64,000 nucleotides of DNA, from assembly GCF_009455635.1 (NCBI RefSeq), contig NZ_QPER01000001.1:2976001-3040000 (forward strand). The letters run 5' to 3'. A program made the position numbers and the translations under genes. Each line of letters starts with the position of its first letter. Position 1 is the first letter of the stretch. The notes under the pieces are model-generated. The model made no database searches. It saw only the letters and a list, made by a program, of their open reading frames with translations, and was not told the origin of the DNA. This stretch comes from Paraburkholderia agricolaris. GTDB taxonomy: Bacteria > Pseudomonadota > Gammaproteobacteria > Burkholderiales > Burkholderiaceae. This document shows positions 13,292 to 32,052 of the stretch, one piece after another.

Positions 13292-13307
13292 AACGGAAGC
13301 GATCACG

Positions 13308-14162
13308 ATGAGCGAAACCGCACTCCATGTCGACCGCGACCGGCTTGGCCACGCTGCCGCGGCGCCGCGCGCGCCGCTCTACCGCAATGCACGCTTGCGC
13401 GCCCTCGCCTGGCGGCTCGCGCCGTGGGTATTGCCGACCGTCCTGTTCGCCTTATGGAGCATCGGTTGCGAGCGCGGCTGGATCGCGCCGCAGATCCTGC
13501 CGCCGCCCCAACGCGTGTTCGATACGTTCGTCGAGCTTGCGAAGAGCGGCGACCTGGTCAGCAACACGCTGATCAGCCTGCAACGCGTGCTGGTCGGTTT
13601 CGCTGCGGGCACGCTGCTCGGTTTTGCGCTTGGCGCGGCACTCGGCCTGTCGCGCACCTTCGAAGCCTACGTGTTGCCGAGCTTCAATGCGCTCGTGCAG
13701 ATTCCGGTGCTCGGCTGGCTGCCGTTTCTACTGCTGCTCGTCGGTGTAGGCGAACCGCTCAAATACATTCTGATCGCGCATGCCGCGCTGGTTCCCGTGA
13801 CGTTGAGCACGCTGCAAGGATTCCGCCAGACCCCCGCTTCGCTCGATGAAGTCGCACGCGTATTCGAATACAGCGGCTGGCAACGAATCTTTTATCTCGT
13901 GCTGCCCGCAGCCGTGCCGACGCTTGCCACCGGCGTGCGGCTTGCGTTCACCAAAGCCTGGCTCGCGCTGGTGGTGGTCGAACTGGTGGCCTCGTCCGAG
14001 GGGCTCGGCTATCTGATCGTCTACGGCCGGCAGTTGTTTCAGCTCGATCTGGTGATGGCGTCGGTGGTGGTGGTCGGCGCGATTGGTTACGCGATGAATC
14101 GTTTGCTCGACGCACTCGAAGCGCGTTTGCGGCGCGGTCAACCGTCGGCGTTTCGCGAGTAA
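13308..14162 (+). CDS. ABC transporter permease, SsuC type (first of two)
   Basis: A 284-residue inner-membrane permease with about six hydrophobic segments. The EAA loop is near residues 178-200 (LDEVARVFEYSGWQRIFYLVLP). It lies 16 bases after the binding-protein gene and 42 bases before a second SsuC-type permease. Classical SsuC works as a homodimer, so two different permeases in one operon suggest a heterodimer here. Confidence 0.9.
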   Translation: MSETALHVDRDRLGHAAAAPRAPLYRNARLRALAWRLAPWVLPTVLFALWSIGCERGWIAPQILPPPQRVFDTFVELAKSGDLVSNTLISLQRVLVGFAAGTLLGFALGAALGLSRTFEAYVLPSFNALVQIPVLGWLPFLLLLVGVGEPLKYILIAHAALVPVTLSTLQGFRQTPASLDEVARVFEYSGWQRIFYLVLPAAVPTLATGVRLAFTKAWLALVVVELVASSEGLGYLIVYGRQLFQLDLVMASVVVVGAIGYAMNRLLDALEARLRRGQPSAFRE

Positions 14163-14204
14163 TGGCGCCAAACGCTGCCATGCACCGCTTATGAGGTATC
14201 TACG

Positions 14205-15086
14205 ATGAGTCTTGCTCTTTTCAAGCGCAGCGCGGCCGTGAAGCAGGCAACTACTGCGTCCTGCGACTGCGCTAACGTGCCCGCCTCCTTCCAGCGCGCC
14301 GTGCGGCCACGCCGGCCGCTGCTCACACGCGTCGACTGGCGCGGCGCCGTCTTGCCGGTCGTCGCCATTGCAATCTGGTGGGCCGTCTCGGAAGCGCACC
14401 TGAGCAAAAGCGGCCTGCTGGTCAGCCCCGCTCAGGTGCTGGCCACCTCGTGGCAGCAGATTGTCAGCGGCGCGCTGTTCAAAGCCCTCTCCGCATCGCT
14501 CGCGCGTGAAGCCAGCGGGTTCGTGATCGGCACGCTGGGCGGCCTGCTGCTTGGCAGCGTGCTCGGTTTCTCGCGTCTCGCCACGCGCATGATCGGCCCG
14601 AGCTTCGACACGTTCAAACAGATCTCCCTGTTCGCATGGATTCCGCTGATTTCCGTGTGGTTCGGCCTCGGCGATGCGGCGAAAGTCGTGTTCCTCTCGC
14701 TCGCGGCCTTGCTGCCGGTCGCCGCGCACACATGCGACGGCATTCATGCAGTACCGCGCGCCTATATCGAAGTCGCGCGCGCATTCCGCTATTCGCGCTG
14801 GCAATTGATCCGCGCGGTCATTCTGCCAGCCGCGCTGCCGTCGATTTTCACCGGCATCTATCTCGCGCTGATCTATTCGTGGCTTGCCACCCTCGGCGCG
14901 GAATATCTGCTGGTGGCGGGCAGCGGGATCGGCAACACGCTGATCGACGGCAGCGAACAGTTCCGCATGGATCTGGTGCTGTTCGGCGTGATCGTGGTCG
15001 GGGTGACCGGCTGGGCGCTGAACGCGCTGGCGCGCGCGGTGGAACGGGCGATCTTTGCGCGCCGTTCACAGGTGCCAACACGATAG
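14205..15086 (+). CDS. ABC transporter permease, SsuC type (second of two)
   Basis: A 293-residue permease of the same family as the preceding gene but clearly divergent in sequence. Its EAA loop is at about 186-210 (YIEVARAFRYSRWQ). The N-terminal 45 residues before the first membrane segment are longer than usual and contain two closely spaced cysteines (20 and 22). Co-directional with the rest of the importer. Confidence 0.9.
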   Translation: MSLALFKRSAAVKQATTASCDCANVPASFQRAVRPRRPLLTRVDWRGAVLPVVAIAIWWAVSEAHLSKSGLLVSPAQVLATSWQQIVSGALFKALSASLAREASGFVIGTLGGLLLGSVLGFSRLATRMIGPSFDTFKQISLFAWIPLISVWFGLGDAAKVVFLSLAALLPVAAHTCDGIHAVPRAYIEVARAFRYSRWQLIRAVILPAALPSIFTGIYLALIYSWLATLGAEYLLVAGSGIGNTLIDGSEQFRMDLVLFGVIVVGVTGWALNALARAVERAIFARRSQVPTR

Positions 15087-15186
15087 ACACGCCGTATTCG
15101 CGATTCACCGAGGGCGCGCCGCGGACACACCGAACGCGCACCAAACGCGCACCGAATTTGCCCTGAACACAGATCAAGGTCCACCC

Positions 15187-16053
15187 ATGACTTCTTCCAC
15201 GCTTGCCGAAAGCATCGACATTCTCCACGTCAGCAAACGCTATGCGCAGCAGGACGGCACACCGCTCGCGGTACTCGACGACATCAGCCTGCGGGTGCGT
15301 CCCGGCGAATTCGTCAGCGTGGTCGGATCGAGCGGTTGCGGCAAGTCGACCTTGCTACGTCTGATCGCGGGACTGGATACCGACTACACCGGCGATATCG
15401 TCGTTGCCGGCGAAAAGGTCCGCGATACGTCGCTCGAACGCGGCATCGTGTTTCAGGATCATCGACTGTTTCCGTGGCTCACGGCGTCGCAGAACATTCT
15501 CGCCGCGTTGCGTAATGCGCCGCTGTCGGTGCGTGAAAAACGCGATGCGGTCGCGCAGCACATCGAACTCGTCGGCCTGAAAGGCTTCGAGAATGCGTAT
15601 CCGCATCAGTTGTCGGGCGGCATGGCGCAACGCGTGGCGATCGCCCGCGGTCTCGTGAACCGGCCGCGCGTGCTGCTGCTCGACGAGCCGTTCGGCGCGC
15701 TCGATGCGCTCACGCGTGGCCGCTTGCAGAACGAACTGCAACGGATCTGGGAACACGAGCGCATTACGATGATTCTTGTCACGCACGACGTCGACGAAGC
15801 GCTTTACCTCGGTGACCGCGTCGTCACGATGGCGCCGCGGCCCGGTCGCATCAAACGGATTGTCGACGTGCCCTTGCCGCGTCCACGCGACCGTAACGAT
15901 CCCCGCTTCATTCGTTTGCGCGACGAAGTATTGGCCGATTTCGCCGAACACGACGGCGCGCGCCGCGCCCCTCACGAAGACGAACCGCCGCACAGCGGCA
16001 CGCGCATTCCGGTCGCGAGTCCGTCGATCACCGAATGGCGGCTCGCGTGGTGA
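15187..16053 (+). CDS. ABC transporter ATP-binding protein, SsuB type
   Basis: A 288-residue ATPase. Walker A (GSSGCGKST) is at 47-55, FQDHRLFPW at 89-97, the signature LSGGM at 142-146 and Walker B (LLLDEP) at 163-168. The FQ-DHRLFPW element marks the SsuB/TauB/NrtD group. The ATG at 15187 (AAGG upstream) was chosen over an open frame that overlaps the permease. The C-terminal tail (about 250-288) is hydrophilic and longer than in E. coli SsuB. It completes the four-gene importer begun at 12224. Confidence 0.92.
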   Translation: MTSSTLAESIDILHVSKRYAQQDGTPLAVLDDISLRVRPGEFVSVVGSSGCGKSTLLRLIAGLDTDYTGDIVVAGEKVRDTSLERGIVFQDHRLFPWLTASQNILAALRNAPLSVREKRDAVAQHIELVGLKGFENAYPHQLSGGMAQRVAIARGLVNRPRVLLLDEPFGALDALTRGRLQNELQRIWEHERITMILVTHDVDEALYLGDRVVTMAPRPGRIKRIVDVPLPRPRDRNDPRFIRLRDEVLADFAEHDGARRAPHEDEPPHSGTRIPVASPSITEWRLAW

Positions 16054-16099: not shown

Positions 16100-17491
16100 A
16101 TGAGCGGTGAAAATCAGCAGAAGCGGCAGATCAAACTGGGCGCTTTCCTGATGGAGACAGGCCACCATATCGCCGCATGGCGACATCCGGATGCGCACGC
16201 AAGTGGCGGACTCGACTTCGCACACTATGCGGAACTTGCGCAGATCGCGGAGCGCGCCAAATTCGATGCGGTATTTTTCGCCGACAGCGTGAGCGTACGC
16301 GACACGAATCTGCCCGCACTATCGCGCACGGCGCGCGCCGATCATTTCGAACCGTTGACGCTGCTGTCCGCGCTTTCGGTCGTGACGAAACACGTCGGGC
16401 TGATCGCAACCGTCTCTACGACATTCAACGAACCGTATAACCTCGCGCGCAAATTCGCGTCGCTCGATCATCTGAGCGGCGGCCGCTCGGGCTGGAATCT
16501 CGTCACGTCGAGCACCGAATCCGAGGCGCTCAATTTCAGTTTCGAACGCCATCCGGAGCACGCGATCCGCTATGAACGCGCGCGCGAGTTCTACGACGTG
16601 GTCGCCGGCCTGTGGGATAGCTGGGAAGACGATGCGTTTATCCGCGACAAGGCAAGCGGCGTCTATTTCGACCCGGACAAGCTGCATGTGCTCGGCCACG
16701 CCGGCAAGCACTTCAAGGTGCGCGGTCCGCTGAACGTCGCGCGTTCGCCGCAGGGGTGGCCGGTTGTGGTGCAGGCCGGCGCATCGGAGGCGGGACGCGA
16801 ACTCGCGGCGCAAACCGCGGAGGTGATCTTCGTCGCGCATCAGACGCTCGACGAAGCGCAGTCGTTCTATCGCGACGTCAAAGGCCGTCTCGCGAAATAT
16901 GGCCGTGCGCCGGATCATCTGAAGATCATGCCGGGTATTTTCCCGATCATCGGCCGCACCCAGGAAGAAGCCGACGCGAAATTCGCCGCGCTGCAGGACC
17001 TGATCCATCCGACTGTGGGCCTGTCGCTGCTGTCGAATATGTCGGGCGGTGTGGACCTGTCCCAGTACCCCGTCGACGGCCCGCTGCCCGAGCTGCCGGA
17101 AACCAACGGCGGCAAGAGCCGCCAACGCCTGTTGTTCGATCTCGCGCGGCGCGAAAACCTGACCATTCGCGATCTGTACCTGCGTATTGCCGGCGCGCGC
17201 GGCCATCAGCAGGTGGTCGGCACGCCGCAAAGCATCGCGGACCAGTTGCAGCAATGGTTCGAAGAAGAAGGCGCCGATGGCTTCAACATCATGTCGCCGT
17301 GGTTGCCGGGCGGCTTGACCGAGTTCGCCGAACTGGTGGTGCCGGAACTGCAACGGCGTGGACTTTTCCGCACCGAATACGAGGGACGCACGCTGCGCGA
17401 GAATCTCGGGCTGCCGCGACCTGCCAACCGTTATACCGACGTGGCAAAACAGCCGCCCGCCACGTTCTCTTTCGCCAGGAGTCTCGCATGA
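16100..17491 (+). CDS. FMN-dependent monooxygenase, NtaA/SnaA/DszA family
   Basis: A 463-residue bacterial-luciferase-like (LLM) enzyme that uses reduced FMN from a separate reductase to oxygenate its substrate. Visible family marks are GHHIAAWRHP (21-30), the FDAVFFAD strand (55-62), FASLDHLSGGRSGWN (119-133) and the C-terminal EYEGRTLRENLGL. DszA relatives open sulfones to sulfinates and NtaA relatives cleave C-N bonds, so the bond attacked is not settled by sequence. It starts at an ATG with CGGAG upstream; the frame is open further back into the ATPase gene but that part is a shadow. Its stop overlaps the next start (ATGA), coupling it to the TauD-like gene. Confidence 0.88.
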   Translation: MSGENQQKRQIKLGAFLMETGHHIAAWRHPDAHASGGLDFAHYAELAQIAERAKFDAVFFADSVSVRDTNLPALSRTARADHFEPLTLLSALSVVTKHVGLIATVSTTFNEPYNLARKFASLDHLSGGRSGWNLVTSSTESEALNFSFERHPEHAIRYERAREFYDVVAGLWDSWEDDAFIRDKASGVYFDPDKLHVLGHAGKHFKVRGPLNVARSPQGWPVVVQAGASEAGRELAAQTAEVIFVAHQTLDEAQSFYRDVKGRLAKYGRAPDHLKIMPGIFPIIGRTQEEADAKFAALQDLIHPTVGLSLLSNMSGGVDLSQYPVDGPLPELPETNGGKSRQRLLFDLARRENLTIRDLYLRIAGARGHQQVVGTPQSIADQLQQWFEEEGADGFNIMSPWLPGGLTEFAELVVPELQRRGLFRTEYEGRTLRENLGLPRPANRYTDVAKQPPATFSFARSLA

Positions 17492-18435
17492 GCGCAGCCG
17501 CATTGCAGGAAACACAGTCGATTCAGGTCAACCCGCTTTCCGCGCATATCGGCGCCGAAATTCACGGTGTCGATCTCACGCAGAAACTGGATGCGCGCCA
17601 GATCGCGGAGATTCGCGCGGCGCTGCTCAAATGGCGCGTCGTGTTCTTTCGCGAGCAATTCCTGACGCACGAACAACACGTCGCGTTCTCGGCACAGTTC
17701 GGCGAGCTGACCCTGGGGCATCCGGTGTTCGGCCATGTCGAGGGCCACCCGGAGGTCTACTCGATCTCCAAGTACCGCAAGGCCACGCGTTTCGAGGGAC
17801 AAACGCTGCAACGCCCCTGGACCGGCTGGCATACGGACGTAACCGCCGCGGTCAATCCGCCCTGGGCCTCGATCCTGCGCGGCGTGACGATTCCGCCTTA
17901 CGGCGGCGACACGCAGTGGACCAGCCTCGTGGCCGCGTATCAGAAGCTCTCCGCACCGTTGCGTGCGTTCGTCGACGGCTTGCGCGGGCTGCATCGTTTC
18001 ACGCCGCCTGCCGGCGCGAGCGGTACGGAGGCGTTTGTGAAAGCCGTCGAGCAACGCATTCTCGTCACCGAACATCCGCTCGTCAGAGTGCATCCGGAAA
18101 CCGGCGAGCGGGCACTGTATGTGAGCCCGAGCTTCCTGAAGTCGATCGTCGGCGTGACGCCGCGCGAGAGCCACGTGCTGCTCGAACTGCTCTGGGAACA
18201 TGTAACACGGCCGGAATTCACCGTGCGTTTCAAATGGGAGGCCGGCAGCGTCGCCTTCTGGGACAACCGCGCGACGGCTCACCTCGCCCCCACCGATATT
18301 TTCGATCTCGACTTCGACCGGCAGTTGTATCGCACCACGCTGGTCGGCGACGTGCCGGTGGGGCCGGACGGCACGCCCTCGGTGGTGATCGAAGGCTCGC
18401 CGGTGAGCGCCGCAGCCGCAGTCGCGTTGAACTGA
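17488..18435 (+). CDS. TauD/TfdA family 2-oxoglutarate-dependent dioxygenase
   Basis: A 315-residue Fe(II)/2-oxoglutarate dioxygenase. The iron ligands fit His115-x-Asp117 (in GWHTDVTA) and His265 (in NRATAHLAP), with an arginine in the C-terminal LYRTTLVGD region for 2-oxoglutarate. TauD releases sulfite from taurine by hydroxylating the carbon next to the sulfonate, and related enzymes act on other sulfonates or sulfate esters. The operon position, coupled by ATGA to a DszA-like monooxygenase and downstream of a sulfonate importer, supports a desulfonating role. Substrate unknown. Confidence 0.9.
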   Translation: MSAAALQETQSIQVNPLSAHIGAEIHGVDLTQKLDARQIAEIRAALLKWRVVFFREQFLTHEQHVAFSAQFGELTLGHPVFGHVEGHPEVYSISKYRKATRFEGQTLQRPWTGWHTDVTAAVNPPWASILRGVTIPPYGGDTQWTSLVAAYQKLSAPLRAFVDGLRGLHRFTPPAGASGTEAFVKAVEQRILVTEHPLVRVHPETGERALYVSPSFLKSIVGVTPRESHVLLELLWEHVTRPEFTVRFKWEAGSVAFWDNRATAHLAPTDIFDLDFDRQLYRTTLVGDVPVGPDGTPSVVIEGSPVSAAAAVALN

Positions 18436-18488
18436 GTACCAGGCCCTCTATCTCCATCTCTTCCCTACCGGGTCCCCCGGAGCTACTG

Positions 18489-19730
18489 ATGACTCTGCAG
18501 GCTTCACCCGTTGCGGCCGCCGAACACCCGGCGGCCGCACCTCGTTCCTATCCACCCGCACACATCATCAGCTCCGACGCTGAGGCAATCGGCATCGCGC
18601 AGAATCTCGCCAGCCGCTTCGCCGTGGATGCCGCGCGCCGCGACCGGGAGCGCAGGTTGCCGCTCGACGAACTGAACGCCTGTTCGCAAGCGGGACTTTG
18701 GGCAATGACCGTGCCCAAGGCCTACGGCGGCGCCCAGGTCTCCTATGTCACGGTCGGGCGCGTGTTCGCGATTCTTGCCGCGGCCGATCCGTCGATCGCG
18801 CAAATCCAGCAGAACCATAACAGCGCCGTGTTCTGGCTCTGGAAAACCGGCAGCGAACAACAACGCTCCCATTTCCTCGGTGCGATCCTGCGCGGTGCTC
18901 GCTTCGGCAACGCCAACGTCGATGCGGGTCCGCAGCCGGTCCCCGGCCCTCGGATGGGCATTACACCGGATGAGGACGGCTATCGCCTGTCCGGCCGCAA
19001 GCTCTATGCAACCGGCGCCCTGTTTGCCGACTATGTCTCGACCATCGGCCAGGACGAACAGGGTCGCCGCATCGTGGCGATCGTGCCCGCAGGACATCCG
19101 GGCATGAACATCGTCGACGATTGGGAGAGTTTCGGTCAGAAGACCACCGCGAGCGGAACGGTCATCTTCGACAATGTATGGGTACCCGCGCTCAACGTCC
19201 TGCCGATTTACCGAAGCTACGAAGAATGGCCGCAAAACGCCATCACCCAGATCAGTCACGCCGGTATCGATGCGGGTATCGCACGCGCCGCCCTCGACGC
19301 GACGATCGCCTTTATCCGGCAACGCGCGTCCAATCCGTCCACCCCGCCAACAGGGCCGATTCATTCCGATCCGTACGTCATCTTCCAGCTCGGCGAACTG
19401 AAGACCCGATTGCACGCGGCCGAGGCGATGCTGGAGCGTGCCGGACACGAGATCGACTTATGCCTCGCCGACCCGCAACCCGACTCGCTTGCCAAGGCGT
19501 CGATCGCCGTGGCCGAAGCCAAGGCGTTGACAACCGAAATCGCGATCCAGGCCGGCAACCAGCTGTTCGATCTGGCGGGCACCCGCTCGACGCATCCGTC
19601 ATTCAATCTCGACCGGCATTGGCGCGACGCACGGGTTCATACCCTGCACGACCCGGTGCGCTGGAAATACGCCGCCGTCGGCAACTTCTATCTGAACGGC
19701 GTCCGACCACCCAGTAGCGGACAGACCTGA
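18489..19730 (+). CDS. Acyl-CoA dehydrogenase-like flavin monooxygenase, SfnB/DszC family
   Basis: A 413-residue protein with the acyl-CoA dehydrogenase fold but the family features of SfnB/DszC enzymes, which oxygenate sulfur using reduced flavin. Supporting marks are TVPKAYGGAQVSYVTVGRVF, DWESFGQKTTASGTVIFDN and the C-terminal HDPVRWKYAAVGNFYLNGV, which is characteristic of SfnB-type proteins. The ATG at 18489 begins the family's usual N-terminus, although a long open frame continues upstream in the shadow of the TauD gene. It closes the first half of the operon; the next gene starts about 300 bases later. Confidence 0.88.
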   Translation: MTLQASPVAAAEHPAAAPRSYPPAHIISSDAEAIGIAQNLASRFAVDAARRDRERRLPLDELNACSQAGLWAMTVPKAYGGAQVSYVTVGRVFAILAAADPSIAQIQQNHNSAVFWLWKTGSEQQRSHFLGAILRGARFGNANVDAGPQPVPGPRMGITPDEDGYRLSGRKLYATGALFADYVSTIGQDEQGRRIVAIVPAGHPGMNIVDDWESFGQKTTASGTVIFDNVWVPALNVLPIYRSYEEWPQNAITQISHAGIDAGIARAALDATIAFIRQRASNPSTPPTGPIHSDPYVIFQLGELKTRLHAAEAMLERAGHEIDLCLADPQPDSLAKASIAVAEAKALTTEIAIQAGNQLFDLAGTRSTHPSFNLDRHWRDARVHTLHDPVRWKYAAVGNFYLNGVRPPSSGQT

Positions 19731-20028: not shown

Positions 20029-21249
20029 GTGACTCATTCAACTCTGACCGCGCCCTCGCCCGCCTCGCCAGCTTCCGCCGACGCGACGCGCGACGCGTCC
20101 CCTTTTGTTCCGGTCCGCTCGCCTGCCACGTTCGCGGATAGCCCCGTCTCGCGCGCACTGGAGGAGCCCCTGCTGCTCGGACTGTTCCTGCCGATTCAGG
20201 CGGGCGGCTGGAGCGCTTCGACACTGGCACGCAGCACCGACTGGTCATTCGACTACAACCTGGCACTTGTGCAGAAGGCCGAGGCGTTAGGCTTCGATCT
20301 CGTCTTCGCTTTGTCGCAATGGTTGCCGAAGGGTGGCTACGGCGGCGTATTCAACGGCGAAGCGCTGGACTCCTTCATGTCGCTCGCCGCGATGACCGCG
20401 CGTACCGAGCGCATCATTCTGGTCGCCACCAGCCATGTGCTTTATGGTCCCTGGCATCCGCTGCATTTCGCGAAGTTCACCGCGACGCTCGATCACATTT
20501 CGAAAGGCCGCTGGGGCATCAACGTCGTCACCGGTCATCGCGCCATCGAGCACGAAATGTTCGGCTGGCACCGTATCGAACATGACCGGCGCTATGAACT
20601 TGCCGCCGAGTTTCTCGACGCCGTTCAGCAACTATGGGCGCAGCCGGAGAACTTCAGCTTCGCGCCCGAGCTTTCCTCGTGGAAGCTGGACAAGGCCTTC
20701 GTCACGCCAAAGCCGCGTTATGGGCGCCCGTTGCTCGTCAATGCGACCGGCTCGGATGCCGGCATCGATTTCGCTGCCCGGTACTCCGACATCGTGTTCA
20801 TCACGAGCCCCGCCGGCTCCGAGATCGAGGGCGCGCTGGCCGCGTTGCCGGCTCACACGGCGCGTGTGAAAGCCGCAGCGGCGAAACACGGCCGCAAGAT
20901 CCGCACGTTGATCAATCCGATGGTGATCTGCCGCGAGACAGAAGCCGAGGCACGCGCCTATCGCGACGCAATCGTCGCACACGGCGACGAGGGCAGTTTC
21001 CACCGTTTCGAAAGCGATGCGCATGCGTGGCGCGGCAACGCGGAACAGCGCAATCAGGCGGCTTCGCGCGCGGTGGGCGGCAACATCTCGATCGTCGGCT
21101 CGCCGCAGCAGATCGCCGACTACATCGCGCGTTTGCATCAGGCCGGCGTCGACGGCGTGCAATTGAGCTTCTTCGATTTTCAGCCGGACCTGGATTTCTT
21201 CGGCGAGCGCGTGCTGCCGCTGTTGCGCGAAGCCGGCTTACGGTACTGA
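20029..21249 (+). CDS. LLM flavin-dependent monooxygenase, SfnG/RutA-like
   Basis: A luciferase-like monooxygenase of about 406 residues. It resembles SfnG (dimethylsulfone monooxygenase) and RutA more than the DszA/NtaA group: STDWSFDYNLALVQKAEALGF near the N-terminus, then TLDHISKGRWGINVVTGH and EHDRRYELAAEFLD. No ATG fits; I placed the start at the GTG at 20029 (ACGGA upstream), which leaves about 45 Pro/Ala/Ser-rich residues before the barrel. A TTG at 19882 is the other option. It is followed after 27 bases by the DszB-like gene, so it may make the sulfinate or sulfonate that enzyme uses. Confidence 0.82.
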   Translation: MTHSTLTAPSPASPASADATRDASPFVPVRSPATFADSPVSRALEEPLLLGLFLPIQAGGWSASTLARSTDWSFDYNLALVQKAEALGFDLVFALSQWLPKGGYGGVFNGEALDSFMSLAAMTARTERIILVATSHVLYGPWHPLHFAKFTATLDHISKGRWGINVVTGHRAIEHEMFGWHRIEHDRRYELAAEFLDAVQQLWAQPENFSFAPELSSWKLDKAFVTPKPRYGRPLLVNATGSDAGIDFAARYSDIVFITSPAGSEIEGALAALPAHTARVKAAAAKHGRKIRTLINPMVICRETEAEARAYRDAIVAHGDEGSFHRFESDAHAWRGNAEQRNQAASRAVGGNISIVGSPQQIADYIARLHQAGVDGVQLSFFDFQPDLDFFGERVLPLLREAGLRY

Positions 21250-21276
21250 TGACAAACAAAACACATAGGTGATCGG

Positions 21277-22335
21277 ATGAGCCAACTTTGGTATACGCGC
21301 TGCCCCGCCCCCACGCCGTTCGGCATTACCGCGCAAAAAGGCTGGCTGGAAGAGGAATTCGCTGCCGACGGCATCGACGTCAAGGCGCTGCAGGATGCCG
21401 ACGACGTGCAGATTCGCCGCTCGCATTTCACGCACACGCAACCCTGGTCGTTCCGCCAGGGCGGCAATATTCCCGCGCTTTGGGCACGTGCCCAGGGCAG
21501 CGACACCCGGTTGATCGGCTTGAGCTGGGTAGATGAATTCCAGGCACTGATCACGCTGGACCGGCAACTCGACACGAGCCCCGAATCTCTTGCCGGACGC
21601 CGCTTTGGCTTCCCGCTCAACACTCGCGCGAGCGTGGTCGATTTTCATCGCGCGACCGCGTTGCGCGGTTTTTCTTCGCTGCTCGGCGTGCTGGGTGTGC
21701 AACTCGAAGACATCGATCTGGTCGATCTGCCGCACACTCCACGCAGCCTTGAAGACGCGAAACCCGCCGCCGATGCCCCGCTCGCCGACTGGCTCGATGC
21801 GCAACGCTCGCACGAATTCGCGCGTGAAGCCGAGGCGCTGCTGCGCGGTGAAGCCGACGTCGTGTTCGTGAAAGGCGCGACAGGCCTCGATATTACCAAC
21901 CTGCTCAACGCCAGGATTCTGGTCGACATCAGCGCCCAGCCCAACCGGGCATTGCATGCGAATAACGGCACGCCACGCCCGCTGACCGTGGATGCGCAAC
22001 TGCTGCGCGAGCGCCCCGACCTGGTCGAACGCGTACTGGCGCGCACGCTGGACACCGGCGCGTGGGCCGCCGATCACGCGGGCGAGGTGGCACAGTACGT
22101 TGCACGCGAAACGCGCAGCGCCGAGCATTGGGTTGAGCGTGCGTACCCGGGCGGTCTGCACCGGCAACTGACGATCGGACTCGACCCCCACGCGCTGGCC
22201 GCACTCGCCGACTTCAAACGCTTTCTGTTCACATGGGGCTTCATTCCATCGGACTTCGATTTCGACGCCTGGGTGGACCCCACGCCCCTTCGCGCAGCGC
22301 TCGCACGACGGCAGGCACTGACCGCTTCGGTTTGA
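21277..22335 (+). CDS. DszB-like sulfinate desulfinase (binding-protein fold, no signal peptide)
   Basis: A 352-residue protein with the SsuA/NMT1 binding-protein fold but no signal peptide, so cytoplasmic. It aligns by eye with DszB (2'-hydroxybiphenyl-2-sulfinate desulfinase). YTRCP places Cys9 at the DszB nucleophile (Cys27), HFTHTQP places His50 at DszB His60, and FRQGGNIP places Arg60 at DszB Arg70 within the RxGG motif. All three catalytic residues and the spacing between His and Arg are kept. DszB hydrolyses a C-S bond to release sulfite. An automatic pipeline would probably call it an ABC binding protein. AGGTGA precedes the ATG. Substrate is likely a non-DBT sulfinate; the three residues make the enzyme assignment fairly firm. 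Confidence 0.82.
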   Translation: MSQLWYTRCPAPTPFGITAQKGWLEEEFAADGIDVKALQDADDVQIRRSHFTHTQPWSFRQGGNIPALWARAQGSDTRLIGLSWVDEFQALITLDRQLDTSPESLAGRRFGFPLNTRASVVDFHRATALRGFSSLLGVLGVQLEDIDLVDLPHTPRSLEDAKPAADAPLADWLDAQRSHEFAREAEALLRGEADVVFVKGATGLDITNLLNARILVDISAQPNRALHANNGTPRPLTVDAQLLRERPDLVERVLARTLDTGAWAADHAGEVAQYVARETRSAEHWVERAYPGGLHRQLTIGLDPHALAALADFKRFLFTWGFIPSDFDFDAWVDPTPLRAALARRQALTASV

Positions 22336-22376: not shown

Positions 22377-24008
22377 ATGGCACATGTCACATCGCAGGCG
22401 GCGCCATGCCGCCGCGGCCAGCATCTGTTCAAGCTCGCATCCGGATGGGCGCTCACGCTCGTCATCGCGCTATCGATCCCGCTATCGAGCCAGTTTGCGC
22501 ACGCACAGACTCGCGGCGGCACGCTCAACTTCATCGTCACGCCGGAGCCGACCGCCCTCGTCGATCTGGCTACCACCGCGACCAATGTGCTGAAGGTCAG
22601 CCCGAAAGTCGTCGAAGGACTGCTCGAGTACGACTTCAAGTTCCAACCCAGGCCGTCGCTCGCCACCTCGTGGGAAGTCAGCGACGACAGTCGTAAATAC
22701 GTTTTCCATCTGCGCCACGGCGTGAAATGGCACGACGGCAAGCCCTTTACTTCCGCAGACGTCGCGTACTCGATCCAGACGCTGAGGCAAGTCCACCCGC
22801 GTGCGAAGACCACTTTCGCCAATCTCACCGACGTCGCAACGCCAGACCCCTACACCGTTGTCATAACGCTGTCGAAACCGGCGCCCTACCTGATCAAGGC
22901 GTTTTCCTCGTCGGAAACGCCGATCGTGCCGAAGCATATCTACGACGGCACCGACGTACTGACCAATCCCGCCAATAACGCGCCGATCGGCACCGGGCCA
23001 TTTCGCTTCGTCAAATGGGTGCGGGGCAGCTATATCGAGTACGTGCGCAACGACGACTACTGGGACAAAGGCAAGCCCTGGCTCGATCGCATTGTCGTCA
23101 AGGTGATCAACGACCCCGCCGCCCGCACCGTCGCATTCGAAGACGGCTCAGCGGATCTGAGCGGCGATTCGCCCGTACCGCTGTCCGATCTCGAACGCCT
23201 GAAAAGCAACCCGAAGCTGGGGCTCGAGACACGTGGTTACGAATTTCAGGCGGGGGTGTCGCGTATCGAGTTCAATCTCGACAACCCGGTGCTGAAGAAT
23301 CCGAAGGTGCGCCAGGCGATCGCCTCGGCGCTGGATCGCGAAGTGATCCGCAAGGTGATCTACTACGGCTACGCGACGCCGCTCGCGAGCCCGATCATCC
23401 CGTCGAATCCCTACTACGACCCCACGCCTACGCCCTATCCATTCAACGTGGAGCATGCCAACGCGTTGCTCGACGAAGCGGGTTATCCGCGCAAGGCCGA
23501 CGGCACACGTTTCGCGCTGACGGTCGACCCATTGCCGATCGGCGATCTGCCCACCCGCACCGCCGCTTACGTCAAATCGGCACTGGCTCGCGTCGGCATT
23601 GCCATCACCGTGCGCAGCCAGGATCTGCCCGCCTACCTGAAGCGGATCTACACCGACCGCGATTTCGATTTCAGCATCAACGGGATGAGCAATCTGTTCG
23701 ACCCCGTGGTCGGCGTGGCCCGTCTCTACACAACCAATAATTTCCGGCGTGGCGTGCCCTTTACCAATGGCTCCCATTACAGCAATCCGGAAATCGATCA
23801 GCTGTTCGCCCAGGTCGCCGAAGAAACCGATGAAGCGAAGCGCAAGGCGTTGTTCTCGCAGATTCAACGCATTCTCGAGCGCGATCTGCCGGACATCAAT
23901 CTCGTGGCGCCGCAGTACCTGACCGTCTATTCGCGCGCGGTGCACAACCATACGACCTCGCCCGACGGCGTCTCGGCCAGTTTCGCCGACGTCTGGCTGC
24001 AACGCTAA
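22377..24008 (+). CDS. Family-5 (peptide/nickel type) ABC substrate-binding protein
   Basis: A 543-residue periplasmic binding protein of the DppA/OppA family. The N-terminus has a Sec-type signal with cleavage near AHA at about 43. Family marks include SPKVVEGLLEYD and HGVKWHDGKPFTSADVAYS. I chose the ATG at 22377 because the signal peptide starts there. No permease accompanies it on this strand; the only matching channel genes in the window are the DppBC-like pair at 31036-33033. It is one of four such paralogues here and probably delivers its ligand to that shared channel. Confidence 0.9.
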   Translation: MAHVTSQAAPCRRGQHLFKLASGWALTLVIALSIPLSSQFAHAQTRGGTLNFIVTPEPTALVDLATTATNVLKVSPKVVEGLLEYDFKFQPRPSLATSWEVSDDSRKYVFHLRHGVKWHDGKPFTSADVAYSIQTLRQVHPRAKTTFANLTDVATPDPYTVVITLSKPAPYLIKAFSSSETPIVPKHIYDGTDVLTNPANNAPIGTGPFRFVKWVRGSYIEYVRNDDYWDKGKPWLDRIVVKVINDPAARTVAFEDGSADLSGDSPVPLSDLERLKSNPKLGLETRGYEFQAGVSRIEFNLDNPVLKNPKVRQAIASALDREVIRKVIYYGYATPLASPIIPSNPYYDPTPTPYPFNVEHANALLDEAGYPRKADGTRFALTVDPLPIGDLPTRTAAYVKSALARVGIAITVRSQDLPAYLKRIYTDRDFDFSINGMSNLFDPVVGVARLYTTNNFRRGVPFTNGSHYSNPEIDQLFAQVAEETDEAKRKALFSQIQRILERDLPDINLVAPQYLTVYSRAVHNHTTSPDGVSASFADVWLQR

Positions 24009-24046
24009 ACCTTTTTCGACTCACATTCTCACGGAATCCGACTCAC

Positions 24047-25096
24047 ATGGAATATAGACAACTCGGCCGCAGCGGTATCAAAGTCTCGACACTCACGCTC
24101 GGCACAATGATGTTCGGCGGCCCGACCGACGCAGCGACCTCGGCGCGCATCATCGATCAGGCTCACGAGCAAGGCGTCAACTCGATCGATACCGCGGACG
24201 TCTACGGCAAGGGCGAATCCGAACGCGTGGTCGGCCGCAGCATCGCCGCGCAGCGCGAGCGCTGGGTGCTCGCCACCAAGTTCGCCAATCCGCTGGACAG
24301 CAGCGACGTCAACGCGCGCGGCGCGTCACGCAAACATATCGTGCGGGCCGTCGAGGCGAGCCTCAAGCGCCTGAATACCGACTACATCGATCTGCTCTAC
24401 ATTCATCGGGAAGATCACGAGACGCCGGTCGAAGAAACCGTGCACGCGCTCAACGATCTGATCCAGGCAGGCAAGCTGCGCTACTACGGTTTGTCGAACC
24501 ATCGCGCGTGGAAGATTGCCGATTTCAGTCATACGGCGCAGGCGCTCGGCCTCGATGCGCCCGTGGCGAGCCAGCCGCTCTACAACATCGCCAATCGCCA
24601 GGCCGAAGCCGAGCAATTGACGGCCGCGCACCGCTATGGGCTCGGTGTGATTTCGTACAGCCCGTTGGCGCGCGGTGTGCTGACCGGCAAGTACGAGCCG
24701 GGTGCGACGCCCGCGTCCGACACGCGCGCGGGCCGCAGCGACCGGCGTCTGCAACAGACCGAGTGGCGCCCTGAATCGCTCGAACTCGCGCGGCGCGTAC
24801 GCGAGCATTCCGAAGCCCGCGGGCTTTCCGCAGGGCAATTCGCGCTCGCCTGGGTGCTCAATAGCCGCTACATCAGCTCGACCATCGCCGGCCCACGTAC
24901 TGAAGCGCAATGGCAGGACTATCTGCCGGCACTGCGTTATCGACTGACTGCAGAAGACGAAGCATTCGTCGACTCGCTCGTCACAAGCGGCCATCCTTCG
25001 ACGCCGGGCTTCAACGATCCGGGTCATCCGTTCTTCGGCCGGCTCCCGCGGCATGGGGCAACCCAGGACGCGCTAGCCGCCGTTCAGCAGGGATAG
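24047..25096 (+). CDS. Aldo/keto reductase
   Basis: A 349-residue NADPH-dependent (beta/alpha)8 oxidoreductase. The tetrad is complete: Asp48 (SIDTAD), Tyr53 (DVYGKGESE), Lys78 (LATKF) and His120 (LLYIHRED). It resembles the YajO/Kv-beta-type group by its LGTMMFGG N-terminal motif. It is embedded between two family-5 binding-protein genes, two bases before the second, so it belongs to the same transcript. It could reduce an aldehyde left after desulfonation, which is what TauD-type reactions produce; this role is inferred. Confidence 0.88.
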   Translation: MEYRQLGRSGIKVSTLTLGTMMFGGPTDAATSARIIDQAHEQGVNSIDTADVYGKGESERVVGRSIAAQRERWVLATKFANPLDSSDVNARGASRKHIVRAVEASLKRLNTDYIDLLYIHREDHETPVEETVHALNDLIQAGKLRYYGLSNHRAWKIADFSHTAQALGLDAPVASQPLYNIANRQAEAEQLTAAHRYGLGVISYSPLARGVLTGKYEPGATPASDTRAGRSDRRLQQTEWRPESLELARRVREHSEARGLSAGQFALAWVLNSRYISSTIAGPRTEAQWQDYLPALRYRLTAEDEAFVDSLVTSGHPSTPGFNDPGHPFFGRLPRHGATQDALAAVQQG

Positions 25097-25098
25097 CC

Positions 25099-26724
25099 AT
25101 GAGCTTCGACCGTCGTCAGTTCCTGCAGACCTCGCTGGCCTTTCTTTCCGCCGGCACCACGGCGGCCTGGCCTGTCCTCGCGAATGCGGCCACGGCTGCG
25201 CCGGCTGGCCAGAACGCCACGCCGTCACCGGGCGGCACGCTCACCTATGCGGTGCCACAGGAGCCGCCATCGCTGTTGTCGCTGCTCGACACCAACACGG
25301 TGATCCGCAACATCAGCGCCAAAATCACCGAGGGCCTGCTGCGCTACGACGCGCAGTTCACGCCGCAGCCGTTGCTGGCGATTGCATGGAGCACCAGCGC
25401 CGACGGTCTCCAGTACACCTTCAAGCTGCGGCCAGGCGTGAAGTGGCACGACGGCGAGAGCTTCACCTCGGCCGACGTGCGCTATTCGATCCTCACTCAA
25501 AAACGTCTCGGACCGCGCGGGCGCATCACGCTCGCCAATGTCGAGCGGGTCGATACACCCGATCCGCTGACGGCCGTGGTGGTGCTCGGCAAGCCCACGC
25601 CCTATCTGATCAAGGCACTGTCCTCGGCAGAATTGCCGATCGTGCCCCTGCATCGCTACGGCGACGGCGATCCGCTAACGAGCCCGAATCTCAATGCGCC
25701 GATCGGCACGGGTCCCTTCATCTTCGACAAATGGGTACGCGGCAGTTACGTGAGCCTGCGCAGGAACCCGAACTATTGGCGCCCGGGCAAACCGCTCCTC
25801 GACCGCGTGATCTATCGCATCGTGCCCGACCAGGCGTCGATTTCGGCCGCGCTCGAAACAGGCGAAGTCGACGCCGCTACCGGCGTGGGCCTGGCCGACC
25901 TCGGCCGCCTCGCGAAACTGCCGCAACTGAAAATCGACGATAGCTACGACGCGTACCTGAATAACGCAGCCTTCCTCGAGTTCAACGTGGAAAATCCGGT
26001 ACTCGCAAAGCCGGAGGTACGTAAAGCCATTGCGCACGCGATCGACCGCAATTTCATCAAGGACAACGTCTTCTACAAACGCTCGAGCGTGGTCGACTCG
26101 CCGGTGCCCGCCGTGTTGGCGAATTACTACGACGACAGCACCTTCCACTATCCCTTCGACGCGAGCGCGGCGAACCGCCTGCTCGACGAAGCGGGCTATC
26201 CGAAACAGGCTGACGGGCAACGCTTCGCGCTCAAGATCAACTACATCACCGGCACCGATTTTCGACGCACCGCCGAATACCTGCGCTCGGCGCTATCGCG
26301 CATCGGCGTCAAGGCGACGATTCTGGACGGCGACCTGCCGGCCTATTTGCGCCGGGCTTATACGGCGCGCGACTTCGATCTGAACCTGAATGGACTCGGC
26401 CGTCTTTACGATCCGACCGTTGGCGTGCAACGGATCTACTGGTCGGATGGCGTCAAGCATCCGCTCATCTGGATCAATGCCTCCCACTATCAGAATCCGC
26501 AGGTCGACGAGCTGTTTCGCCAGGCCGCCATCGAAACGGACGACACACGCCGCGCGGCCGCGTTCCGTCAGATCCAGCAGATCGTCGGCCGCGACCTGCC
26601 GGTGCTGCCGCTCGTCACGGTGCCCGCGGTGCAGGTCTATCACGCAAGGGTTCACAACCTGACCAACAGCATCGATCTCATCGCCGGCGATTTGTCCGAC
26701 GCGTGGATCGAGGCGAAAACCTGA
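25099..26724 (+). CDS. Family-5 ABC substrate-binding protein with Tat-type signal
   Basis: A 541-residue DppA/OppA-family binding protein. The N-terminus FDRRQFLQ is a good twin-arginine signal, with a hydrophobic stretch to about residue 30. The mature part follows the same scheme as the other three paralogues here (KITEGLLRYD, PGVKWHDGESFTSADV), but is the most divergent. The ATG lies two bases after the aldo/keto reductase stop, and the amidase follows after 25 bases. Confidence 0.9.
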   Translation: MSFDRRQFLQTSLAFLSAGTTAAWPVLANAATAAPAGQNATPSPGGTLTYAVPQEPPSLLSLLDTNTVIRNISAKITEGLLRYDAQFTPQPLLAIAWSTSADGLQYTFKLRPGVKWHDGESFTSADVRYSILTQKRLGPRGRITLANVERVDTPDPLTAVVVLGKPTPYLIKALSSAELPIVPLHRYGDGDPLTSPNLNAPIGTGPFIFDKWVRGSYVSLRRNPNYWRPGKPLLDRVIYRIVPDQASISAALETGEVDAATGVGLADLGRLAKLPQLKIDDSYDAYLNNAAFLEFNVENPVLAKPEVRKAIAHAIDRNFIKDNVFYKRSSVVDSPVPAVLANYYDDSTFHYPFDASAANRLLDEAGYPKQADGQRFALKINYITGTDFRRTAEYLRSALSRIGVKATILDGDLPAYLRRAYTARDFDLNLNGLGRLYDPTVGVQRIYWSDGVKHPLIWINASHYQNPQVDELFRQAAIETDDTRRAAAFRQIQQIVGRDLPVLPLVTVPAVQVYHARVHNLTNSIDLIAGDLSDAWIEAKT

Positions 26725-26749
26725 CACTTCATCACGAGCCATTTCAACC

Positions 26750-28276
26750 ATGACCGCCCATCAACTGGATGATCCGAAGTCCGCCGTTCTCAACGCACTG
26801 ACTTTCGCCAGCGCACGAGAGCAGGCACAAGCCCTGGCCGAAGGCCGCGTGTCAGCCGTCGAACTGCTCGAACACAGTCTCGCGCGGATTGCCCGTTTCG
26901 ATGGCGAGTTGAATGCCGTGGTCGCTCACGACCACGAAGCGGCGCGCGCCGCGGCCCGCGAGGCCGATGCCGCGTTAGCGCGCGGCGAGCGGCGGCCGTT
27001 GCTAGGTGTGCCGGTCACGGTGAAGGAATCGTTCGATGTGGCAGGACTCGTCACCAGCGTCGGCAACCCTGCTTTCGCGGCGAATCGCGCCGAGCGTGAT
27101 TCACTCGCGGTCGCCGCGCTGCGTGAAGCCGGTGCGGTGATTGTCGGCAAGACCAACGTACCGATCGGTCTGACGGACCTGCAAAGCTACAACCAGGTCT
27201 ACGGATTGACGCGCAATCCGTGGGATCTGGAGCGCACGCCTGGCGGTTCGTCAGGTGGCTCTTCTGCGGCGCTTGCGGCGGGCTACGTCGCGCTCGAACT
27301 CGGCTCCGATATCGGCGGGTCGATCCGCATTCCCGCGCACTTTACCGGCGTCTACGGTCATAAGCCCAGCTACGGCCTCATCTCGCTGCGGGGCGCCGGT
27401 GCGCCGCCGGGGCGTTTTTCCGCGCGCGATCTGAGCGTGGCGGGCCCGTTGGCGCGCAGTGCGGGCGACCTGGAACTCGCACTGGATCTGCTGCTCAATC
27501 GCGACCCGCTGACCGCCAAAGCGTGGCGCGCGACCCTGCCGCCCGCACGCCATGCCCGACTCGCCGAGTTTCGCGTGCTGGTCATCGATACCTGGCCCGG
27601 TACCGAACGCAGCCGGTCGGAACGACTCGTCACTGAGCGTGTGGTCGAGCGTCTGCGCACGCAAGGCGTCCAGGTGAGCCGCCCCGCCGACCTGCCCGCC
27701 GACCTGCTGCCCGATCTGGCGCGCGCGCATCCGCTGTACAGGTCGCTGCTGGGGTCGTCGCTCGCCGAGCCGCCTGCCCAAAGCGAAATAGCCCGGCAAC
27801 GGCTCGCCGGACTCGCCGCGGACGACGACAGCGCCGACGCCGCCTGGCTGCGTGCGCCGACGCTCGCGCATCGCGACTGGCTCAAAGCCGACGAACGACG
27901 CCACGCATTGCGTCATCAATGGGAACGGCTGTTCGAATCGTTCGACGTGGTCGTGACGCCGGTTGCACCGGTGCCCGCGTTCCGCCACAACCACGAAGAG
28001 CCGAAAGACGCGCGAACCTATCCGGTGGCCTACGAAGACGGCGTGCGCCAGGTGCGCTTCCTCGACTTCTTCTATTGGGCGGGCCTGCCCGTGCTGCCCG
28101 GCTTGCCCGCTACCAGTTTCCCGCTCGGCCTCGACGACGACGGCTTGCCGGTGAGTGCGCAAGCCGTCGGTCCGTGGCTGGAAGACCGCACGCCGATTGC
28201 CTTCGCGCGCCTGCTGGAACAAGCCTATGGCGGCTTTCTCGTGCCGCCCGGTTACGAAGCGGGCCCGGCCCAATAA
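26750..28276 (+). CDS. Amidase, amidase-signature family
   Basis: A 508-residue amidohydrolase. The Ser-cisSer-Lys triad is visible: Lys92 (TVKESFD), the cis-serine in GGSSGGSS (165-172), and the nucleophile Ser191 in GSDIGGSIRIP. There is no signal peptide, so it acts in the cytoplasm on an imported amide. Within a unit that has peptide-type binding proteins and sulfur oxygenases, hydrolysis of an N-acyl sulfonate (for example an acyl-taurine-like amide) or a sulfur-containing peptide derivative is a reasonable guess and no more. Confidence 0.9.
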   Translation: MTAHQLDDPKSAVLNALTFASAREQAQALAEGRVSAVELLEHSLARIARFDGELNAVVAHDHEAARAAAREADAALARGERRPLLGVPVTVKESFDVAGLVTSVGNPAFAANRAERDSLAVAALREAGAVIVGKTNVPIGLTDLQSYNQVYGLTRNPWDLERTPGGSSGGSSAALAAGYVALELGSDIGGSIRIPAHFTGVYGHKPSYGLISLRGAGAPPGRFSARDLSVAGPLARSAGDLELALDLLLNRDPLTAKAWRATLPPARHARLAEFRVLVIDTWPGTERSRSERLVTERVVERLRTQGVQVSRPADLPADLLPDLARAHPLYRSLLGSSLAEPPAQSEIARQRLAGLAADDDSADAAWLRAPTLAHRDWLKADERRHALRHQWERLFESFDVVVTPVAPVPAFRHNHEEPKDARTYPVAYEDGVRQVRFLDFFYWAGLPVLPGLPATSFPLGLDDDGLPVSAQAVGPWLEDRTPIAFARLLEQAYGGFLVPPGYEAGPAQ

Positions 28277-28317: not shown

Positions 28318-29172
28318 ATGTCCCGAACCCTTGCAGCACCCTCACCGCGCAGGCGGCGCCTCACCGGCGCTTTCCTGCTGGCCGCCACGCTCACTACGCT
28401 CGCCGCCTACGGCGCGGATACAGGCGGTACTGCGCAGGAGTTGCGGGTCGGTTTCGTGCCCGGCCCGTACGCGGACGAATTCAAGGCGGGCGTCGAACCG
28501 CAATTGCGCAAGAAAGGCTACGCGATCAAATACGTCGAGTTCAGTACCGGGCTCGAAGCGAATCAGGCGGTGTATCGCGGCGAGATCATCGCCGACGTGA
28601 TGCAGCACGAGGTCTATCTGAAGTCGTATAACGATCGCAACGGCACCGATCTGGTCGGCGTGGTGCAGGTGCCTACGCCGCCGATGGGCCTCTACTCGAA
28701 CAAACATCGCTCACTGGCGGAGGTGAAGCCCGGCGCGCGTGTCGCGGTGCCGAACGACCCGGTCAATCTGGAGCGCGCGCTGAAAATTCTCCAGCGCATC
28801 GGCTGGATCAGGATCAAGCCGAACCCGAATCCTGTCGACGTAACCGAGCGCGACGTGATCGCCAACCCGGCGGGCATCAAGATCGTTCCGCTTGAATCGG
28901 CACAGGCGCCGCGCGCACTCGACGATGTCGATTACGCCGCGATTCAGGGCAATTTCGCGATCTTCAGCGGCCACAAACTGACCGATGCTTTGGCACTTGA
29001 AGAGATGACACCGCCGTATATCAATCAGGTCGTCGTCAAGGCAAGCAATCGCAATACGCGTGCGACGCAGGACATCGTGCAGGCGTATCAATCGGCGGAT
29101 TTCCAGCGTGCAATTCGTGGCAATCGCTTCTATGACGGCTTTCGCTTGCCGGCGTACTTCGGCAACGAGTGA
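28318..29172 (+). CDS. MetQ/NlpA-family ABC substrate-binding protein, orphan
   Basis: A 284-residue periplasmic protein of the D-methionine-binding MetQ/NlpA family (DVMQHEVYLKSYN, VVQVPTPPMGLYSNKH). It has a cleavable signal peptide but no lipobox cysteine, so it is not lipid-anchored as in E. coli. No MetN or MetI partner is found in the window, so it must use a channel elsewhere or have another job. It is the last gene of the plus-strand run and is followed by two perfect hairpins. The ATG at 28318 was chosen to fit the signal peptide. Confidence 0.88.
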   Translation: MSRTLAAPSPRRRRLTGAFLLAATLTTLAAYGADTGGTAQELRVGFVPGPYADEFKAGVEPQLRKKGYAIKYVEFSTGLEANQAVYRGEIIADVMQHEVYLKSYNDRNGTDLVGVVQVPTPPMGLYSNKHRSLAEVKPGARVAVPNDPVNLERALKILQRIGWIRIKPNPNPVDVTERDVIANPAGIKIVPLESAQAPRALDDVDYAAIQGNFAIFSGHKLTDALALEEMTPPYINQVVVKASNRNTRATQDIVQAYQSADFQRAIRGNRFYDGFRLPAYFGNE

Positions 29173-30982: not shown

Positions 30983-31035
30983 GGTGCATCCTTTGTACGT
31001 TGTCGGCTGCTTTCAAGCCGCATGTGAGTCGCTGC

Positions 31036-32007: not shown

Positions 32008-32052
32008 TTCATTCCTCTGAGATTAAACAGGTCGGCGTGCGTGTGAAAGCCG

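What the first reader, a model, noticed from the sequence alone, without database searches (positions are those of the whole stretch)
21277..22335. DszB-type desulfinase hidden as a 'binding protein'
The protein has the SsuA fold but no signal peptide. It keeps the three DszB catalytic residues in matching positions: Cys9 (DszB Cys27), His50 (His60) and Arg60 (Arg70) within an RxGG motif. DszB enzymes are known mainly from dibenzothiophene desulfurisers. Here the enzyme sits in a beta-proteobacterial sulfonate operon, so it probably acts on a different aryl- or alkyl-sulfinate.
Basis: partly seen in the sequence, partly recalled or inferred. Interest (0 to 1): 0.85.

Follow-up and report, generated by a model that had tools for sequence, protein, structure and literature searches.

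The report
DszB-like desulfinase mislabelled as binding protein
A soil bacterium's gene, of a kind that databases often label a transporter binding protein, looks instead like an enzyme that strips sulfite from organic sulfinates, a relative of the fuel-desulfurising enzyme DszB with the same catalytic core but a rebuilt substrate pocket and different gene partners.

Summary
ORF 21277-22335 (+, 352 aa) has only 8 codons between its ATG and an in-frame stop, so no room for a signal peptide. Its only credible PDB relatives by sequence are DszB structures (family profile E 2.8e-29). DszB's active-site set Ser25, Cys27, His60, Arg70, Gly73 aligns as Thr7, Cys9, His50, Arg60, Gly63; T-C-H-R is kept in 212 of 234 usable homologues. 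The tree places it in a sister clade of DszB, apart from Ssu-type binding proteins. 'DszB-type desulfinase' is well supported, though unassayed.

The interpretation needs correcting. (1) The recurrent context is not the SsuABC-type operon upstream but a SfnG-like flavin monooxygenase, an Opp-type binding protein and an aldo-keto reductase. (2) The pocket differs: the DszB Trp155 loop is missing and Lys199, Arg234, Arg8 and His53 are near-invariant, suggesting a polar or anionic aryl sulfinate. (3) At least 821 homologues exist, a few already named desulfurase. (4) A natural Cys-to-Ser paralogue clade exists, one copy in this genome.

Proposed pathway, inferred: sulfone to sulfinate plus aldehyde (SfnG-like), sulfinate to sulfite (this protein), aldehyde to alcohol (AKR). 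Active-site geometry could not be measured.

The parts
21277..22335 (+). DszB-like sulfinate desulfinase (352 aa), cytoplasmic; catalytic set Thr7, Cys9, His50, Arg60, Gly63
20029..21249 (+). SfnG-like luciferase-family (LLM) flavin monooxygenase, ends 27 bp before the desulfinase; proposed sulfone-to-sulfinate step
   Evidence: TIGR04021 194.8 bits, below cut-off 382.95; PDB 8t0u SfnG E 4.8e-53; PF00296; association
22377..24008 (+). Opp-type (SBP_bac_5) solute-binding protein, next gene downstream; recurrent neighbour
   Evidence: next downstream gene of 31 of 33 clade-A desulfinase ORFs; start read from the sequence
24047..25096 (+). Aldo-keto reductase; proposed to reduce the aldehyde released by the monooxygenase
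   Evidence: PF00248; 30 of 34 clade-A loci
25099..26724 (+). Second Opp-type solute-binding protein (my reading of the translation; no family scan)
26750..28276 (+). Amidase (PF01425)
   Evidence: 6 of 34 clade-A loci
28318..29172 (+). NlpA/MetQ-type lipoprotein (PF03180); start read from the translation
29267..33033 (-). Opp-type ABC transporter: double ATPase 29267-30982, permeases 31036-32007 and 32053-33033 (my reading of the translations; no family scan)
18489..19730 (+). SfnB-family (DszC/MsuC-like) oxidoreductase; possible S-oxidation step
   Evidence: (TIGR04022 550.8 bits, above cut-off 430.9; DszC model 178.5, below 850)
16100..17491 (+). NtaA/DmoA-family flavin monooxygenase, related to DszA/BdsA
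   Evidence: TIGR03860 620.8 bits, above 279.7; BdsA 5tlc E 1.9e-100
17488..18435 (+). TauD-type 2-oxoglutarate dioxygenase
   Evidence: taurine dioxygenase model 236.5, below cut-off 313; 5hsx E 5.6e-205
12224..16053 (+). Ssu-type ABC importer: SBP with signal-like N-terminus 12224-13291, permeases 13308-14162 and 14205-15086, ATPase 15187-16053; close copies of this block seen only in L008, L009, L010, L019 within the fetched flanks

Best explanation
A cytoplasmic, cofactor-free sulfinate desulfinase of the DszB superfamily, in a subfamily distinct from true DszB. Proposed chemistry, by analogy with DszB: Arg60 and Gly63 hold the sulfinate, His50 (tuned by the Thr7 hydroxyl) stabilises the Cys9 thiolate, and the Cys9 proton is delivered to the aryl carbon bearing sulfur, releasing SO2/sulfite. 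The pocket lacks DszB Trp155 and the family carries near-invariant Lys/Arg, so the substrate is probably a polar or anionic aryl sulfinate. The sulfinate is probably made by the neighbouring SfnG-like FMNH2 monooxygenase from an imported sulfone, with the aldo-keto reductase removing the aldehyde; sulfite then feeds assimilation. Shown: homology, active-site residues, no signal peptide, synteny. Inferred: activity, substrate class, order of steps.
For: DszB is the only PDB relative. Profile score 308 to DszB, 135 to Ssu-type SBPs. Tree: SBPs, DszB clade (17 rows) and this clade (36 rows) separate with starred support. T7/C9/H50/R60 kept in 212 of 234 homologues; in 75 usable of 79 DszB-clade rows S25 74, C27 74, H60 75, R70 75, G73 75. 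The residues are also lost together: 16 of 19 Ser-bearing paralogues read A7-S9-I50. AF2 model pLDDT 90.8, helix 44-52 carrying His50, like DszB 55-62, which forms helix on substrate binding (PMC6100217, passages). SfnG-like gene near 32 of 34 clade-A loci; in 200 family genomes it occurs in 12 of 14 with a clade-A desulfinase and 17 of 186 others. SfnG makes methanesulfinate (PMC8234197, passages).
Against: No assay and no measured geometry. The SfnG-like gene occurs without the clade-A desulfinase in 17 of its 29 genomes, and 2 of 14 desulfinase genomes lack it; it is the next gene upstream in 20 of 33 clade-A ORFs, so the pair is not obligate. Among the 14 loci of the 47%-identical Opp-type group, the SfnG-like gene is in 10 and AKR in 4, so the wider family does not keep the whole set. 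The SfnG-like protein fails the SfnG cut-off, so its substrate is unknown. One Cys-bearing homologue has Asn and one has Asp at position 50. Loci were fetched by motifs that include Cys9 or Arg60, which biases their counts. That K199 and R234 line the pocket is not shown.
Confidence: 0.68

Rival explanations
1. A cytoplasmic binding or sensor protein that has kept the DszB-like cysteine for another reason (regulation, sulfinate buffering or delivery to another enzyme).
For: The fold family is that of SBPs (PF09084 near its threshold of 20.5 for this protein, 20.4, and for DszB, 21.3); Ser-bearing paralogues persist (19 of 234), so some family members may have a non-catalytic role.
Against: Cys9, His50, Arg60 and Thr7 are kept together in 212 of 234 homologues; profile much closer to DszB than to SBPs; the 352 residues align with DszB nearly end to end (4-344 with 22-363), leaving no room for a DNA-binding or membrane part.
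Confidence: 0.15
2. A desulfinase for alkyl or amino-acid-like sulfinates (such as methanesulfinate, the SfnG product), replacing MsuC and MsuD.
For: The recurrent neighbour is SfnG-like, and SfnG makes methanesulfinate (PMC8234197, passages); polar residues K199/R234 near-invariant.
Against: The computed DszB mechanism is electrophilic aromatic substitution (PMC6100217, passages), hard to run on an alkyl carbon; Phe51 (DszB Phe61) is F or Y in 200 of 234, fitting an aromatic ligand.
Confidence: 0.12
3. A true 4S-pathway DszB giving dibenzothiophene desulfurisation with the window's NtaA- and SfnB-family enzymes as DszA and DszC.
For: Relatives of all three Dsz enzymes are encoded within 16100-22335; one database name begins 'Dibenzothiophene des'.
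Against: Separate clade from DszB; Trp155 column a gap in 234 of 234 (also a gap); DszC equivalog score 178.5 vs cut-off 850; NtaA-type gene at 22 of 34 clade-A loci.
Confidence: 0.05

Closest known systems
[quoted passage not shown]
   Same: Near full-length homology; Ser/Thr25, Cys27, His60, Arg70, Gly73 conserved; follows a flavin monooxygenase gene, as in the mycobacterial dsz locus
   Different: 31% identity to a mycobacterial DszB; own clade; segment matching DszB 121-170 is 32-34 residues in 222 of 234 instead of 50 and lacks Trp155; Trp225, Leu226, Ser253, Asn26, Tyr63 correspond to Lys199, Gly200, Arg234, Arg8, His53
SsuA-type aliphatic sulfonate-binding protein (TIGR01728)
   Same: Periplasmic-binding-protein-type-2 fold family, distant profile similarity, the label that many relatives carry
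   Different: No signal peptide; has the Cys/His/RxGG set that the window's own SBP lacks
SfnG-MsuC-MsuD dimethylsulfone pathway of pseudomonads
   Same: SfnG-like and SfnB/MsuC-family enzymes beside it; sulfone to sulfinate logic
   Different: There the sulfinate is oxidised to sulfonate and then cleaved (PMC8234197, passages); here a desulfinase would release sulfite directly
Gordonia terrae bdsABC benzothiophene operon
   Same: Desulfinase plus FMNH2 monooxygenase plus alkanesulfonate-type monooxygenase, with ABC transporter genes of neighbouring locus numbers (PMC3868597, passages)
   Different: Actinobacterial; the sequence of that desulfinase was not compared here

Membership tests
DszB superfamily (desulfinase fold with Cys-His-Arg) | Near full-length sequence homology to DszB, closer than to binding proteins | tested here: met
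DszB superfamily (desulfinase fold with Cys-His-Arg) | Ser/Thr25, Cys27, His60, Arg70, Gly73 | tested here: met
   Thr7, Cys9, His50, Arg60, Gly63
DszB superfamily (desulfinase fold with Cys-His-Arg) | Cytoplasmic, no export signal | tested here: met
   8 codons between in-frame stop and ATG, no hydrophobic N-terminus
DszB superfamily (desulfinase fold with Cys-His-Arg) | The catalytic residues meet in one site in 3D | not testable with these tools
True 4S-pathway DszB (HBPS desulfinase) | Hydrophobic pocket residue Trp155 | tested here: not met
   column is a gap in 234 of 234; gap also in the profile alignment
True 4S-pathway DszB (HBPS desulfinase) | Hydrophobic pocket residue Phe203 | tested here: inconclusive
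   column variable (K 61, E 29, A 28, gap 23 among 234), loop alignment unsure
True 4S-pathway DszB (HBPS desulfinase) | Falls in the DszB clade | tested here: not met
   sister clade
True 4S-pathway DszB (HBPS desulfinase) | dszABC operon partners | tested here: not met
   recurrent partners are SfnG-like LLM, Opp SBP, AKR; DszC equivalog below cut-off
True 4S-pathway DszB (HBPS desulfinase) | Sulfite from HBPS | not testable with these tools
   needs assay
SsuA-type sulfonate-binding protein | Signal peptide | tested here: not met
SsuA-type sulfonate-binding protein | Score above TIGR01728 cut-off (163.5) | tested here: inconclusive
   this protein 50.5, but the window's own exported SBP also fails with 144
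SfnG (neighbour 20029-21249) | Score above TIGR04021 equivalog cut-off | tested here: not met
   194.8 vs 382.95 bits

The most novel reading that the evidence does not exclude
Proteobacteria carry an alternative 4S-like sulfur-scavenging route assembled from different families than dszABC: SfnB-type S-oxidation, SfnG-like C-S cleavage of polar sulfones, then direct desulfination by a DszB sister enzyme with a charged pocket, served by Opp-type or by Ssu/TonB-type uptake. Within it, natural Cys-to-Ser DszB paralogues have become substrate-binding pseudoenzymes, natural counterparts of the laboratory C27S mutant.
Probability: 0.35. Interest if true: 0.66.

Novelty: new variant of a known kind. 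Interest (0 to 1): 0.47.

Why it matters
A large set of proteins labelled as ABC-transporter binding proteins would be enzymes, so sulfur metabolism in soil and plant-associated bacteria would be misread at these loci. It would show that direct desulfination of sulfinates is not a curiosity of fossil-fuel desulfurisers, give a gene-level entry to which sulfones or sulfinates soil bacteria use, and supply new scaffolds for DszB, whose slow turnover limits biodesulfurisation (PMC12168087, passages, and its abstract as listed).

Tried and rejected
Rejected: a missed start with a signal peptide; plain SsuA-type SBP; true DBT-type DszB; 'operon with SsuABC' as the recurrent unit. A promoter and terminator scan of 19600-20100 found none of either, with about 0.1 and 0.3 expected by chance, so a separate transcript start before 20029 rests on synteny alone. 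Ten paper searches (listings of at most 20 papers each) showed no paper on an enzyme of this clade. I opened eight papers, passages only. One of them, PMC4839641, reports DszB peptides in Chelatococcus (an alphaproteobacterium, as I recall); the peptide quoted is that of Rhodococcus-type DszB. The library lacks most subscription journals, so absence there is weak. In PMC5748707 and PMC5979394 the only hit was a table row on a monooxygenase. A Pfam run failed on a wrong coordinate and was done later with other proteins.

The groups (34 clade-A, 14 Opp-type at about 47%, 30 rest) were set by hand; one clade-A locus (L038) gave no desulfinase ORF call, hence 33. Fisher P 6.5e-10 ignores kinship; its 14 clade-A genomes are those of the 20 with identity of 57% or more, and the genome searches scored at most 10 and 9 first-look candidates a genome. 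The tree's outgroup is 7 Ssu-type SBPs plus one long-branch row flagged by the program, rooted at the midpoint. The DszB clade there also holds a few proteobacterial rows (such as P0191, P0194), so the split is not purely by phylum.

Full report
What is there. The open frame 21277-22335 (+) encodes 352 residues. The frame before the ATG reads RY**QTKHIGDR, so translation cannot start far upstream, and the N-terminus is not hydrophobic. The window lies in an 8.72-Mb genome of two contigs. The nearest named relatives are Paraburkholderia fungorum strains (97 and 96% identical proteins, nearly the same gene order; L008 lacks the second Opp SBP and the amidase).

Relation to DszB. phmmer against the PDB gives DszB at 7.4e-17 and one chance row. 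A profile of 22 relatives (A2) finds only the DszB chains at E<=0.01 (2.8e-29). Profile-profile comparison scores 308 against DszB, 135 against seven Ssu-type SBPs, and 172 for DszB against those SBPs. In a 61-row tree the SBPs (with one long-branch row), the DszB clade (17 rows) and the window's family (36 rows) separate with starred support. The window's family is thus a sister clade of DszB, not a transporter SBP. The rows of this clade whose source the tree prints by name are Pseudomonadota; the DszB clade is mostly actinobacterial by its names but also holds a few proteobacterial rows.

Active site. In DszB, C27S is inactive, H60Q loses about 17-fold, R70 lies in an RXGG motif, S25 bonds His60 and G73 contacts substrate; the computed mechanism is electrophilic aromatic substitution by the Cys27 proton (PMC6100217, passages read). 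These five align as Thr7, Cys9, His50, Arg60 and Gly63. Of 241 distinct sequences, 234 family members have both the Cys9 and Arg60 columns filled. In these R60, G62 and G63 are 234/234, C9 215/234, H50 216/234 and T7 215/234; T-C-H-R (with His53) is 212/234. In the 117 usable of 121 phmmer-side sequences (query and the 120 listed hits), C9 is 117/117, H50 116/117 and T7 116/117. The 19 members without Cys all have Ser: 16 read A7-S9-I50, 2 read A7-S9-H50 with Tyr53, and 1 keeps T7 and H50. The three residues are mostly kept or lost together, as expected of a working unit; most of the losses are one clade, so this is few events. In the tree the Ser row L053_9111 lies apart from the other three Ser rows, though its own placing is weakly supported.

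Pocket. DszB residues named as hydrophobic contacts are F61, W155 and F203 (PMC6100217). The F61 column is F or Y in 200 of 234. The W155 column is a gap in 234 of 234, and the segment matching DszB 121-170 is shorter (32-34 residues in 222 of 234, against 50). W225, L226, S253, N26 and Y63 of DszB correspond to K199 (232/234), G200 (232), R234 (232), R8 (234) and H53 (231). I infer a polar or negatively charged aryl sulfinate. That these residues line the pocket is not shown here.

Model. AlphaFold2 on A2 gives pLDDT 90.8 and pTM 0.89, with a helix at 44-52 that holds His50. In DszB residues 55-62 form helix on substrate binding and bring His60 in.

Neighbourhood. Directly upstream (27 bp) is a SfnG-like LLM monooxygenase (20029-21249). 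Downstream are an Opp-type SBP, an aldo-keto reductase, a second Opp SBP, an amidase and a NlpA-type lipoprotein, with Opp permeases and ATPase on the other strand. I fetched 78 loci. Of 34 clade-A loci (58-97% identical), within the flanks held, the SfnG-like gene is present in 32, an Opp SBP in 34, AKR in 30, SfnB family in 26, NtaA family in 22, MetQ type in 15, Ssu-type SBP in 12 (10 of them weak matches), TauD in 11, amidase in 6 and Ssu-type permease in 6. Among 33 desulfinase ORFs called there, the next gene downstream is the Opp SBP in 31; the next upstream is the SfnG-like gene in 20 and AKR in 7. In a second group of 14 Opp-type loci (about 47% identical) an Opp SBP is in 14, SfnB family in 14, the SfnG-like gene in 10, amidase in 9 and AKR in 4. 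Close copies of the window's SsuABC-NtaA-TauD block were seen only in L008, L009, L010 and L019. Across 200 family genomes the desulfinase family occurs in 20 (E<=1e-30) and the SfnG-like gene in 29 (E<=1e-100). Of 14 genomes with a clade-A desulfinase 12 have the SfnG-like gene, against 17 of 186 others; in these 12 both lie on one contig, 31 to 2992 bases apart by the tabulated ends. Across 299 genomes of the phylum 6 have the family.

Second cluster type. The same genome has three more family members at G000:C2:1430380-1437420 (43-46% identical), beside an Ssu-type SBP and permeases, an LLM monooxygenase, ExbB, a class II aldolase, a sigma-54-type regulator and a TonB receptor (the names aldolase, regulator, ExbB and TonB receptor are my reading of the sequences, not family scans). 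One of the three has Ser for Cys. The set recurs in Burkholderia, with variants in Massilia and Duganella. These loci lack the Opp module in the flanks held, so the enzyme family serves at least two gene contexts.

How it most likely works. An imported sulfone is split by the SfnG-like enzyme into a sulfinate and an aldehyde; SfnG itself turns dimethylsulfone into methanesulfinate (PMC8234197, passages). The desulfinase releases sulfite, and the aldo-keto reductase disposes of the aldehyde. SfnB-family enzymes may make the sulfone from a sulfide. Only homology, residues, lack of an export signal and synteny are shown; the reactions are inferred.

Novelty. Homologues are numerous (821 at E<=0.001 among 8000 scored candidates) and a few carry desulfurisation names, so the relation to DszB is not new to annotators. 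The separate clade, the rebuilt pocket, the recurrent SfnG-like/Opp/AKR partners and the Ser paralogues did not appear in the listings of the ten paper searches named under Tried and rejected. I rate it a new variant of a known kind.

Noticed in passing
G000:C2:1430380-1431390 (L004; L007 6357-7691, - strand): DszB-family paralogue with Cys9 replaced by Ser, Thr7 by Ala and His50 by Ile, next to Cys-bearing paralogues; 19 of 234 family members have Ser. A natural analogue of the inactive C27S DszB used for crystals.
   Followed up: partly
L007 (G000:C2:1424000-1443500): Second sulfur cluster with three DszB-family genes, LLM monooxygenase, Ssu-type SBP and permeases, ExbB, TonB receptor, class II aldolase and sigma-54-type regulator; recurs in Burkholderia genomes, with variants in Massilia and Duganella.
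   Followed up: partly
window 46408-49060 (-): A second NtaA/DmoA-family monooxygenase next to a second SfnB-family gene, both above their NCBIfam cut-offs: organosulfur-type genes reach from about 12 to 49 kb of the window.
   Followed up: no
window 22377-36533: Four Opp-type solute-binding protein genes around one Opp-type transporter (ORFs, my reading), suggesting several related substrates.
   Followed up: no
L006 (Sphingobium sp. TomTYG65 plasmid): Three divergent DszB-family genes in one alkanesulfonate cluster, annotated 'monooxygenase', one of them with the gene name soxB; one has D and N at the His50 and His53 positions.
   Followed up: partly
G124:C2:198059-198856: SfnG-like gene match with one TGA inside, beside an intact desulfinase frame; L017, L038 and L040 also show short or split SfnG-like matches.
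   Followed up: no
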